A stretch of 64,000 nt of DNA, taken from the NCBI RefSeq assembly GCF_024298905.1, contig NZ_CP101154.1, positions 3,250,932 to 3,314,931 of the forward strand, written 5' to 3'. This DNA comes from Natronomonas marina. GTDB lineage: Archaea > Halobacteriota > Halobacteria > Halobacteriales > Haloarculaceae. Below, one piece after another: positions 4,315-13,872 of this stretch. The notes beneath the pieces are model-generated. The model saw only the letters and a program-made list of their open reading frames with translations. It was not told where the DNA came from and did not search any database. The position numbers and the translations under genes were made by a program. The stretch's first letter is position 1; each line of letters begins with the position of its first letter.

Positions 4315-4402
4315 CTACTCAATTTCTAACTGGCCATTTCCGCTGCTCTCCTCACCGGCGTTCTCGTCCCATTCGAGTTCAAACTCAACACTCAATTCAG
4401 TC
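4315..4402 (-). pseudogene. amphi-Trp domain gene, 3' fragment cut off by the IS
   Basis: Read on the minus strand this gives ELSVEFELEWDENAGEE... and a TAG stop at 4315-4317. Joining it to the 5' fragment at 5345-5552 after removing the IS and one 8-bp target copy restores one continuous amphi-Trp frame. Amphi-Trp proteins are small haloarchaeal proteins with an amphipathic, conserved-Trp strand; the expected Trp (ELEW) is in this fragment, so the disrupted gene has lost it. Confidence 0.85.
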
Positions 4403-5344
4403 GGCTCCATTGAATCGCCATAGGGAGTTGGAATCAGCGGGTCACGTACTGTTTGATGTTGTAGACGAGACACATCAGGACGATCTCACGGAACTCACGG
4501 TACCATTCACGCGCTCGGACGGCGGAGCCGTACGAGCGCTTGACCGAGGAGTTCACTGTCTCTGTCATTGAGCGCTGATTGTAGAGATCATCCTCGATTC
4601 GTGCGTTGTGCGCGTGGTCGTAGGGTGCGAAGACGCGATGTTTCACGAGCGGGCGTATTCCCATGTCTCGGAGGGTCTCACGCAATGGCTGGCTGTCGTA
4701 GCCTTTGTCCGCGGCAAGGGTCTGCAACTCGCCCGCGTATCGGCGGGCGAGTTGCGCACAGACCTCTGCGTCACTTCCTTCTCGTGTGGTCGTGCAATGC
4801 ACGTCTAAGATCGCTTGCGTCTCTGTATCGACGAGTTTCGTCGCTTCGACGACCGTCTGGACGCGGTAATCAGTACGGTCGCAGTAGTGTTTGCTCGCCG
4901 GTGACCGCTCGTAGTAGGTTGCGTCAACGGCGACGTGTGGCGACGGGTCGTGCAGCTGCGCCGAGTGGCGCAGCAGCACTCGCCAAACCTGCATCACGAT
5001 CTTATCAAGCCACTTATTCAACGTCGATGGGTCCGGGAGATCGTCGGCCTCAAGGCCGACGACCTCCAGAATTGGCGGCATCACCTCTAATCGGTCGATG
5101 ATCATCTCGTAGGTTTCGTCGAGGAAAATCCGCAGCCCATGGAGGGAAATCATCGCGTATTCCGCGAAGCTGCCGCCGCCTTCCGGGGCGGCAGCTTCGT
5201 CGGGATCGTCGCAATAACTTTTGGCCAGCGACACCATTTCCTCGGTGAAGCGGGTGGTGATGTTCATCCAAACTGCCACTCACCCGCTTCAACTCCTTTG
5301 ATTTACCGACCGATCCCGCTGCCATCTAGTGATTCAATGGAGCC
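4403..5344 (-). mobile_element. ISH1-like (IS5 family) insertion sequence, copy 1
   Basis: A 942-bp element. The left end GGCTCCATTGAATC is matched by GATTCAATGGAGCC at the right end (14-bp perfect terminal repeats, weaker match beyond). The flanks are an 8-bp direct duplication, ATTCAGTC at 4395-4402 and 5345-5352. Eight-base duplications are typical of the ISH1 subgroup of IS5. The element carries one transposase gene. A second, almost identical copy is at 12934-13872. Confidence 0.95.
4434..5279 (-). CDS. ISH1-like IS5-family transposase (copy 1)
   Basis: A 281-residue DDE transposase. It has an N-terminal helical region (ITTRFTEEMVSLAKSYCDD, then YAMISLHGLRIFLDETY), first Asp in VAVDATYYERSPASKHY, second Asp in LAADKGYDSQPLRE and the C-terminal region with catalytic Glu (RSMTETVNSSVKRSYG...REWYREFREI). 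All three acidic residues appear present and the frame is intact, so this copy may be active. It differs from copy 2 by one extra valine codon (TVVEATKLV here, TVEATKLV there). Confidence 0.95.
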   Translation of the reverse strand: MAVWMNITTRFTEEMVSLAKSYCDDPDEAAAPEGGGSFAEYAMISLHGLRIFLDETYEMIIDRLEVMPPILEVVGLEADDLPDPSTLNKWLDKIVMQVWRVLLRHSAQLHDPSPHVAVDATYYERSPASKHYCDRTDYRVQTVVEATKLVDTETQAILDVHCTTTREGSDAEVCAQLARRYAGELQTLAADKGYDSQPLRETLRDMGIRPLVKHRVFAPYDHAHNARIEDDLYNQRSMTETVNSSVKRSYGSAVRAREWYREFREIVLMCLVYNIKQYVTR

Positions 5345-5552
5345 ATTCAGTCATATTGTCAGCTGGGCCTTCGCGTTCGGCTTTGACCTCGAAGGTCGGT
5401 CGGGCAGGGGGATTCAGCGTTACAGACTCGGAGCCTGCTTTCAGGCTGATAGCGTTACCGCTGTCGAGATTGTCCGCAACTTTCCGGAGGTACGATGCAA
5501 TCTCTTCTCGACTCTGGTCGCTCTCTGATTTGAACAGGACTTCTTCAGGCAT
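5345..5552 (-). pseudogene. amphi-Trp domain gene, 5' fragment interrupted by IS copy 1
   Basis: The frame begins MPEEVLFKSESDQSREEIAS at 5552 and runs through KVADNLDSGNAISLKAG and PPARPTFEVKAERE to DNMTE, where the IS begins. This is the start of the amphi-Trp family. The frame continues exactly across the excision point into the fragment at 4315-4402, giving an intact protein of about 95 residues before insertion. An upstream ATG at 5597 is possible, but family members normally start MPEE. The disruption is probably inactivating. Confidence 0.85.
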
Positions 5553-11094: not shown

Positions 11095-12180
11095 ATGTCA
11101 GAACCCAACCAGGACATCGACGAGACGGACAGCCAACAAACTGAGGACCAGCGGTCAGATGCGGTCGCGAGAAGGATAGAGGAAAACATGGATGATGGGG
11201 GTGGTTGTACGGAGGCCTGGGCCGCAGCCCGCCGCCTCCGGGAATCGGCTCCGGAACCGATCGTCAGCAGTCGGCGTTCGTTCATCGGCGGGATCGTCGC
11301 AAGCGTGGTCTTCGGTGCTACTGCGGCCCAGGGGGCTGCGGCAGAGGAAACAACGTCTCATGCCGAGGTCAACCCCGAGCAAATGGAACTGAAAACCGAA
11401 TCGGAGGGGCTCAGCGATCGGGCAACCGAGAAGCTCTTCACCAAAATCCAGGAGCAGCCCGAGGTTCCCCAAGTCATTGGAAGAATCGAGGAACGGCTCG
11501 ATAAAGCACTTAGGTCCCATTCACATGATTCATTCGAACTCAATGTGGACCGTGCGACCGCCCGCCGTGTTATCTACGAGGAAGCCGAATGGAAGTTCAT
11601 CCATATCCCTTACAGCACCCCGGTGCCCAGTGTCGATGCGGGACTCGTCTGGACAAATCGAGAAGGGCGGCAACCATACGGCTACGTCTCCACGCTTGAG
11701 AAACGACCAGATCATTCGGTATCTTCTCTCCTTCAGGAGTTACCGAAGAAGAACAGCATTGATTACGAGGCGGCCGATGTTCAAGCAATGGAGCACTCAG
11801 TCACCACGATCGAAGCAAACGACGGCGCTACCACCAGTAACAGCTTCTCCGAAGTGGTGCCCATCGCTCAAAATAAAGAGGCCCTGATAGAACAGGCGAC
11901 TAACGAGTCCGTGGAAACCTCTAATGTCACATCCCAAAATATCTATGATTGTGCCTGCTTCCTATTTGTAATCCCAAAGTATCAATGTACGCCATGTGGT
12001 ACATGGGACCTCGGGTGCTTATACCAGATTGCGGAGGAATTTGCCGCAGAAATCGCTATCTGTGGGACTTGTACGGCAACCAGAAACAAAACCCCCTGTG
12101 TCGCCTGTGCGGGTTACGCCGTGGAATATATTCTCGGCGGCGATTATGAGCACCTGTGCTGCCCGTGTGACACATATTAG
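11095..12180 (+). CDS. Halocin C8-like precursor: Tat-exported protein with Cys-rich tail
   Basis: A 361-residue protein. A long polar N-region leads to a twin-arginine motif at 58-65 (SSRRSFIGG) and a hydrophobic stretch (IVASVVFGATAAQGAAA). A central domain of about 190 residues follows. The last 80 residues (282-361) hold 12 cysteines, including DCAC, CTPC, CGTC, CVAC and CCPC. This layout (Tat signal, immunity-like middle, Cys-rich C-terminal peptide) matches the halocin C8 precursor ProC8, whose mature peptide of about 76 residues has 10 cysteines. The ATG at 11095 follows a TATA-like TTAATTTTA (11054-11062) and GGAG. Longer upstream frames run through AT-rich promoter. Antimicrobial function is inferred. 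Confidence 0.72.
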   Translation: MSEPNQDIDETDSQQTEDQRSDAVARRIEENMDDGGGCTEAWAAARRLRESAPEPIVSSRRSFIGGIVASVVFGATAAQGAAAEETTSHAEVNPEQMELKTESEGLSDRATEKLFTKIQEQPEVPQVIGRIEERLDKALRSHSHDSFELNVDRATARRVIYEEAEWKFIHIPYSTPVPSVDAGLVWTNREGRQPYGYVSTLEKRPDHSVSSLLQELPKKNSIDYEAADVQAMEHSVTTIEANDGATTSNSFSEVVPIAQNKEALIEQATNESVETSNVTSQNIYDCACFLFVIPKYQCTPCGTWDLGCLYQIAEEFAAEIAICGTCTATRNKTPCVACAGYAVEYILGGDYEHLCCPCDTY

Positions 12181-12244
12181 ATCTTCCGCTTGATCGTGAC
12201 GAACCTGAATTATCCCGATTTCTGCCCCGATAATTCGGACCTGG

Positions 12245-12670
12245 TCACTCAATAGACGAGAGGACGAGTTCCGAGAAGAACATCGCCCAGATGAGGAAGA
12301 TGAAACCAATCGCTGCGGTCTCAGGGATTCCTCGAGGGAATATAACTAGGAGGAATAAAACGGATATCACCATGACTACTAAGAAAAGGACATTGTTATC
12401 AACATATTGTTGACTTTTGGCCCAGGACTTGGCGTACTGCGATAGGACGGCCCCGAGTATTCCGACTACAAGAGATACGACGATCGCAACGATCCCAGGA
12501 AACGATTGGACAGACCCACCTAAGAAATCGAAATAAACAATCGCTGTTACAAACACGGAAACTAAGAATCGTGTACCTATTTTCCTTATTTCTATATTAT
12601 TTACTTTAAAGTTTGAGACCATATTTATTATTGTATTCCAGGTGCTAAAATAGTTTGGGTCTGCCGACAC
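12245..12670 (-). CDS. Four-helix membrane protein next to the halocin-like gene
   Basis: A 141-residue, AT-rich gene. Four hydrophobic segments (about 34-52, 56-79, 92-112 and 115-136) predict a polytopic membrane protein with a polar N-terminus. No family is recognised. It is convergent with the halocin-like gene, with 64 bases between stop codons, and shares its low GC, so both may have arrived together. A role in self-protection or export is possible but only suggested by position. The start is the GTG at 12670. Confidence 0.65.
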   Translation of the reverse strand: MSADPNYFSTWNTIINMVSNFKVNNIEIRKIGTRFLVSVFVTAIVYFDFLGGSVQSFPGIVAIVVSLVVGILGAVLSQYAKSWAKSQQYVDNNVLFLVVMVISVLFLLVIFPRGIPETAAIGFIFLIWAMFFSELVLSSIE

Positions 12671-12933: not shown

Positions 12934-13872
12934 GGCTCCATTGAATCGCCATAGGGAGTTGGAATCAGCGGGTCACGTACTGTTTGATGTTGTAGACGAG
13001 ACACATCAGGACGATCTCACGGAACTCACGGTACCATTCACGCGCTCGGACGGCGGAGCCGTACGAGCGCTTGACCGAGGAGTTCACTGTCTCTGTCATT
13101 GAGCGCTGATTGTAGAGATCATCCTCGATTCGTGCGTTGTGCGCGTGGTCGTAGGGTGCGAAGACGCGATGTTTCACGAGCGGGCGTATTCCCATGTCTC
13201 GGAGGGTCTCACGCAATGGCTGGCTGTCGTAGCCTTTGTCCGCGGCAAGGGTCTGCAACTCGCCCGCGTATCGGCGGGCGAGTTGCGCACAGACCTCTGC
13301 GTCACTTCCTTCTCGTGTGGTCGTGCAATGCACGTCTAAGATCGCTTGCGTCTCTGTATCGACGAGTTTCGTCGCTTCGACCGTCTGGACGCGGTAATCA
13401 GTACGGTCGCAGTAGTGTTTGCTCGCCGGTGACCGCTCGTAGTAGGTTGCGTCAACGGCGACGTGTGGCGACGGGTCGTGCAGCTGCGCCGAGTGGCGCA
13501 GCAGCACTCGCCAAACCTGCATCACGATCTTATCAAGCCACTTATTCAACGTCGATGGGTCCGGGAGATCGTCGGCCTCAAGGCCGACGACCTCCAGAAT
13601 TGGCGGCATCACCTCTAATCGGTCGATGATCATCTCGTAGGTTTCGTCGAGGAAAATCCGCAGCCCATGGAGGGAAATCATCGCGTATTCCGCGAAGCTG
13701 CCGCCGCCTTCCGGGGCGGCAGCTTCGTCGGGATCGTCGCAATAACTTTTGGCCAGCGACACCATTTCCTCGGTGAAGCGGGTGGTGATGTTCATCCAAA
13801 CTGCCACTCACCCGCTTCAACTCCTTTGATTTACCGACCGATCCCGCTGCCATCTAGTGATTCAATGGAGCC
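12934..13872 (-). mobile_element. ISH1-like (IS5 family) insertion sequence, copy 2
   Basis: A 939-bp element with the same GGCTCCATTGAATC terminal repeats as copy 1 and an 8-bp target duplication ATTCACGG at 12926-12933 and 13873-13880. Both copies' duplications begin ATTCA, suggesting a target preference. It is nested inside an older, degenerate IS5-type transposase. The only length difference from copy 1 is a 3-bp deletion. Confidence 0.95.
12965..13807 (-). CDS. ISH1-like IS5-family transposase (copy 2)
   Basis: 280 residues, the same protein as the transposase at 4434-5279 except for loss of one Val codon (GAC repeat near 13380). The Asp of VAVDATYYER, the Asp of LAADKGYD and the C-terminal Glu region are present, so it may be active. 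Near-identity of the two copies points to recent transposition. Confidence 0.95.
   Translation of the reverse strand: MAVWMNITTRFTEEMVSLAKSYCDDPDEAAAPEGGGSFAEYAMISLHGLRIFLDETYEMIIDRLEVMPPILEVVGLEADDLPDPSTLNKWLDKIVMQVWRVLLRHSAQLHDPSPHVAVDATYYERSPASKHYCDRTDYRVQTVEATKLVDTETQAILDVHCTTTREGSDAEVCAQLARRYAGELQTLAADKGYDSQPLRETLRDMGIRPLVKHRVFAPYDHAHNARIEDDLYNQRSMTETVNSSVKRSYGSAVRAREWYREFREIVLMCLVYNIKQYVTR

What the first reader, a model, noticed from the sequence alone, without database searches (positions are those of the whole stretch)
11095..12670. Halocin C8-like antimicrobial locus in an AT-rich island
The precursor has a Tat motif, an immunity-like middle and an 80-residue tail with 12 Cys (halocin C8 has 10). 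The neighbouring four-helix membrane protein shares low GC and is convergent. The locus sits between a permease remnant and nested transposons, as expected for transferred DNA. The tail sequence differs from halocin C8 and may be a new variant.
Basis: partly seen in the sequence, partly recalled or inferred. Interest (0 to 1): 0.72.

Follow-up and report, generated by a model that had tools for sequence, protein, structure and literature searches.

The report
Halocin-like toxin precursor with membrane partner
This salt-loving archaeon carries an intact gene that looks like the precursor of a secreted, cysteine-rich antimicrobial peptide, built like the known halocin C8 precursor but with a different end, next to a small membrane protein that probably protects the producer.

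Summary
Window 11095-12177 encodes an intact 361-aa protein with a twin-arginine signal, a middle domain and an 80-residue tail with 12 cysteines; a convergent, AT-rich four-helix membrane protein lies 64 bp away.

Full-length homologs occur in several other haloarchaeal genera. All 12 tail cysteines are invariant, and in three of those loci a homologous membrane protein again sits tail-to-tail.

It is halocin-C8-like in architecture and in its middle domain (profile-profile E 5e-8 against C8-type precursors). The tail is not a halocin C8 domain: no TIGR04449 hit and no tail-to-tail similarity.

The protein belongs to a modular haloarchaeal family sharing an N-terminal 'DGGGCxExW' leader, a Tat signal and often a 'V[ST]xQ' motif at the tail junction, with different cysteine-rich tails, some truly C8-type. 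Adjacent small membrane proteins resemble each other only when the tails do, as expected for cognate immunity proteins.

The most likely function is a Tat-exported, protease-activated halocin with HalI-like self-inhibition and a dedicated membrane immunity protein. Activity and immunity are inferred, not shown. I rate it a new variant of a known kind; one relevant 2019 survey could not be read.

The parts
11095..12180 (+). Precursor gene, 361 aa plus stop
   Evidence: Intact frame; full-length homologs in other genera
11095..11268 (+). N-terminal leader, residues 1-58, with DGGGCTEAW (residues 34-42)
   Evidence: Invariant G37, C38, E40, W42 region in class members; leader profile finds 19 genomes at E<1e-12
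11269..11346 (+). Twin-arginine (Tat) signal, R60-R61, residues 59-84
   Evidence: RR invariant in all 15 aligned relatives
11347..11925 (+). Middle domain, related to the HalI-containing region of halocin C8 precursors
   Evidence: hhalign prob 94.8, E 5e-8, shuffles far lower
11926..11937 (+). Junction motif VTSQ, residues 278-281, possible processing site
   Evidence: [VIL][STN][TSAI]Q within 22 residues before the tail in 17 of 39 precursors against 2.3% background; motif chosen post hoc
11938..12177 (+). Cys-rich tail, residues 282-361, 12 Cys: predicted mature peptide
   Evidence: 12 Cys invariant in five genera; no TIGR04449 match
12245..12670 (-). Four-helix membrane protein, candidate immunity protein; start could be ATG at 12622 rather than GTG at 12670
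   Evidence: Homologs tail-to-tail with the same tail class in L052, L053 and L127
10690..10960 (-). Permease-like remnant bordering the island
   Evidence: Read by eye in one frame
12934..13872 (-). IS5-family element, transposase 12965-13807, 8-bp target duplication
   Evidence: Profile match, terminal repeats, three genome copies, duplication

Best explanation
A two-gene, horizontally mobile, halocin-type antagonism unit. Shown: a precursor with a conserved leader, a Tat-type signal, a middle domain related to the HalI-containing region of ProC8, and a 12-Cys tail of its own class; and a small membrane protein that recurs beside the same tail class. Inferred: the precursor is exported by Tat with the tail held inactive by the HalI-like middle domain; an extracellular protease cuts at or near the V[ST]xQ junction and frees an acidic, disulfide-rich peptide of about 76-80 residues; the peptide attacks the membrane or a membrane protein of related haloarchaea; the neighbouring four-helix membrane protein gives the producer tail-specific immunity, alone or with the middle domain.
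For: Middle-domain homology to halocin C8 precursors; relatives with the same leader carry TIGR04449 tails; invariant Tat arginines and 12 tail Cys; tail-to-tail membrane partner in three other loci and a degraded fourth pair; small multi-TM neighbours enriched beside precursors, 13/38 against 8/80, and similar only when tails are similar, 7/21 against 0/57; junction motif. ProC8 is Tat-exported and yields HalI and a 76-aa peptide (PMC11509114); haloarchaeal precursors can be activated by secreted serine proteases (PMC12893001).
Against: No activity, processing or immunity was measured. The tail is not homologous to any characterised halocin. Many homologs of the membrane protein stand without a precursor within 1.5 kb. 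Neighbour statistics treat related loci as independent. ProC8 itself lacks the junction motif and the extra membrane gene.
Confidence: 0.68

Rival explanations
1. A halocin-like peptide whose immunity lies only in the middle domain, as proposed for HalI in ProC8; the membrane protein is unrelated to immunity (for example export, anchoring or chance).
For: The middle domain is related to the HalI-containing region; canonical ProC8-type loci have no such membrane neighbour in my scan; orphan homologs of the membrane protein exist.
Against: Conserved tail-to-tail pairing in four loci and co-variation of neighbour with tail.
Confidence: 0.15
2. A secreted Cys-rich protein with a non-antagonistic role (adhesin, metal or redox protein, peptide signal), with the membrane protein as receptor or anchor.
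For: Function of this tail class is untested; Cys clusters can bind metals; some members carry a dedicated FilR1-type regulator, which would suit signalling.
Against: HalI-like middle domain, exchange of the tail for genuine halocin C8 tails within the family, patchy distribution and decay of genes.
Confidence: 0.12
3. The N-terminal leader, not the tail, is the active fragment, as in HmHapP of Haloferax mediterranei.
For: HmHapP releases an active 45-residue N-terminal fragment with two helices (PMC12893001); the leader here is predicted, at low confidence, to form two helices.
Against: The leader precedes the Tat signal and should be removed with it; the 12-Cys tail is invariant. I could not obtain the HmHapP sequence to compare.
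Confidence: 0.05

Closest known systems
Halocin C8 precursor ProC8 (TIGR04449 tail, PF22862 Hac8_like_N)
   Same: Twin-arginine signal, related middle domain, Cys-rich C-terminal tail of about 80 residues
   Different: Tail is a different class with 12 Cys, not matched by TIGR04449; extra N-terminal leader; a separate membrane protein beside it; V[ST]xQ at the junction
HmHapP (HFX_0892) with halolysin HlyR4, Haloferax mediterranei (PMC12893001)
   Same: Latent secreted haloarchaeal precursor; a protease is proposed to release the active part
   Different: HmHapP's active part is its N-terminal fragment; homology not testable here because its sequence was not obtained
Polymorphic toxin systems (PMC3482391, not read in full here)
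   Same: Common N-terminal module, variable C-terminal part, tail-matched neighbour; resemblance in logic only
   Different: Short Cys-rich peptides with small membrane partners rather than enzymatic toxin domains

Membership tests
Halocin C8 (TIGR04449) | Tail matches the halocin C8 domain profile | tested here: not met
   No hit at E<=1; tail profiles do not align (prob 0.05)
Halocin C8 (TIGR04449) | Ten-Cys pattern of the mature peptide | tested here: not met
   12 Cys in a different, conserved spacing
Halocin C8 precursor middle domain (PF22862 Hac8_like_N) | Profile match of the middle domain | tested here: inconclusive
   No Pfam hit for the single protein; profile-profile match to C8-type precursors at E 5e-8
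Halocin C8 precursor | Twin-arginine signal | tested here: met
   R60-R61 with hydrophobic stretch, invariant in relatives
Halocins in general | Kills or inhibits other haloarchaea | not testable with these tools
   Needs a growth-inhibition assay
Halocins in general | Proteolytic release of the active peptide | not testable with these tools
   Only a junction motif seen
DGGGC-leader Cys-tail precursor family (as delineated here) | Leader motif, Tat signal and Cys-rich tail together | tested here: met
   this sequence is one of the rows of the leader model, so the independent support is the hits in other genomes
Dedicated immunity protein | Conserved pairing with the tail class | tested here: met
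   Tail-to-tail partner in L052, L053, L127
Dedicated immunity protein | Protects against the peptide | not testable with these tools
   Needs expression in a sensitive strain

The most novel reading that the evidence does not exclude
Haloarchaea carry a polymorphic halocin system: one conserved delivery module (leader, Tat signal, HalI-like domain, V[ST]xQ cleavage junction) combined with many interchangeable Cys-rich tails, each with its own small membrane immunity protein; this window holds an intact pair of a previously unmodelled tail class.
Probability: 0.4. Interest if true: 0.7.

Novelty: new variant of a known kind. Interest (0 to 1): 0.55.

Why it matters
Few halocins are known at sequence level, and for C8 the immunity is held to lie in the same polypeptide. 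A tail-matched membrane partner and a shared junction motif give directly testable candidates for a separate immunity protein and for the cleavage site, and a way to find halocin-like precursors that current models (TIGR04449, PF22862) miss and that RefSeq calls hypothetical.

Tried and rejected
A genome-contig scan with the single protein found nothing and the 15-sequence alignment was too diverse to scan with; a four-sequence alignment worked. No relative in viral contigs or phage records; one on a Halorubrum trapanicum plasmid. The solved-structure search gave only weak hits, best E 0.3. AlphaFold of the precursor failed (mean pLDDT 40), so no fold search was run. A first middle-domain comparison included signal sequence and was repeated without it. 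Tail homology to halocin C8 was tested and rejected. Weak leader-profile matches often contain stop codons and were treated as chance. Makarova et al. 2019, the archaeal antimicrobial survey, is not held.

Full report
What is there. Window 11095-12180 (+) is an intact gene of 361 codons. The protein has a 58-residue leader with DGGGCTEAW, a twin-arginine signal (R60-R61), a middle domain, and a tail holding 12 of its 13 cysteines. The tail is acidic (net charge -5). On the other strand, 64 bp away and convergent, 12245-12670 encodes a four-helix membrane protein. Both genes are AT-rich for this window (GC 0.548 and 0.423 against 0.661). Upstream is a minus-strand stretch that reads like a permease remnant (by eye). 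Downstream is an IS5-family element at 12934-13872 with an 8-bp target duplication, present in three copies in the genome, inserted in what reads like an older transposase remnant.

Is it a real gene? Matches occur in 16 of 391 genomes of the class including its own, five others nearly full-length, the best at E 1e-31, and in none of the 11 other genomes of its genus sampled. A second collection names two of the closest relatives and adds two: Halopiger goleimassiliensis, Actinarchaeum halophilum, Halapricum sp. CBA1109 and a Haloferacaceae MAG. At about 30% overall identity, all 12 tail cysteines, the leader cysteine and the twin arginines are invariant.

The family. A profile of the leader plus signal finds strong hits (E<1e-12) in 19 genomes. 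The members read have the order leader, Tat signal, variable middle, Cys-rich tail (some are truncated or interrupted), but several unlike tails; three reach the cut-off of TIGR04449, the halocin C8 domain. Canonical C8 precursors, one of which (L024) hits PF22862 at 1.7e-48, lack the leader. TIGR04449 occurs in 43 of 391 genomes. I found no Pfam or NCBIfam model for the leader or this tail, and RefSeq calls the plasmid-borne relative and its small neighbour hypothetical proteins. The window's own genome holds a second precursor with a different, 10-Cys tail.

Halocin C8 or not? I compared profiles of six members of this tail class with twelve C8-type precursors, part by part. The middle domains, with signals removed, align with hhalign probability 94.8 and E 5e-8: score 53.5 against a maximum of 21.7 in 100 column shuffles and 10.5 for the reversed profile. 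The tails do not align (probability 0.05, score below the shuffles). So the middle domain is related to the HalI-containing region of ProC8, while the tail is of another class. Related tails occur in 13 of 391 genomes at E<=0.001, some of them on precursors without the leader.

The membrane protein. Its homologs in Halopiger and Actinarchaeum sit tail-to-tail with the precursor, 15 and 23 bp away, and in the Haloferacaceae MAG the two genes overlap tail-to-tail. A degraded locus in G328 keeps a tail remnant beside a frameshifted homolog. Beyond this class, a small protein with at least three predicted TM helices lies within 400 bp of 13 of 38 precursors against 8 of 80 control genes (Fisher p 0.0035; loci are related and two are near-duplicates, so the p-value is optimistic). 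Among 13 precursor-neighbour pairs, neighbours are similar in 7 of 21 tail-similar comparisons and in 0 of 57 others. Tail-specific immunity predicts this, though joint inheritance would look alike. Against exclusivity, many homologs of this membrane protein have no precursor within 1.5 kb.

Processing. In 17 of 39 distinct precursors, with unlike tails, a [VIL][STN][TSAI]Q motif lies within 22 residues before the first tail cysteine, against 2.3% of random windows in the middles (the motif was chosen after looking and sequences are related, so the nominal p of 3e-18 is far too strong). Here it is VTSQ, residues 278-281. It could mark a common cleavage site; the ProC8-like L024 lacks it.

Most likely working. 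Established for relatives: ProC8 is Tat-exported and gives HalI and a 76-residue peptide (PMC11509114), and a haloarchaeal precursor can be activated by extracellular serine proteases (PMC12893001). Inferred here: export by Tat, inhibition by the HalI-like middle, cleavage near VTSQ, release of a disulfide-rich peptide against related cells, protection by the membrane protein. None of these steps was shown.

Other family features. A FilR1-type regulator (PF08350 with PF25213) is encoded divergently upstream of two G027 members and of the second precursor of this genome, and upstream on the same strand in G053, but not here.

Limits. Structure prediction was uninformative. The main prior survey of archaeal antimicrobial peptides (Makarova et al. 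2019) could not be read and may already describe parts of this family; that is the main risk to novelty. That L024's tail equals mature halocin C8 is from memory, supported here by its PF22862 and TIGR04449 matches.

Noticed in passing
window 21881-45589 (-): A single open frame of 7902 codons with AT skew near -0.5; Pfam sees only TSP3_bac repeats: probably a giant surface protein.
   Followed up: partly
L117:6066-6908 (own genome, G000:C1 about 1354.1-1354.9 kb, -): Second leader-type precursor in the same genome, 280 aa with a different 10-Cys tail, a 75-aa two-helix neighbour and a divergent FilR1-type regulator.
   Followed up: partly
L123:4304-4984 (G269); frames of about 228 aa at leader hits in G050, G089, G319, G079: The DGGGCxExW leader motif also heads a 226-aa protein with no visible Tat signal and a CxxC-containing C-terminus, so the leader may be a more general module. 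Only L123 was read.
   Followed up: no
L121:4854-5628 (G041) and L065:6874-7323 (G227): Truncated precursors: in G041 only the leader and signal remain while the 4-TM neighbour is kept; in G227 the frame is cut short beside a transposase-like gene.
   Followed up: no
L082:1071-1814 (G328): Degraded pair: a tail remnant without leader beside a frameshifted homolog of the window's membrane protein.
   Followed up: yes
window 4395-5349: A 99%-identical copy of the IS5-family element that lies at 12934-13872; another copy is at C1:705878.
   Followed up: no
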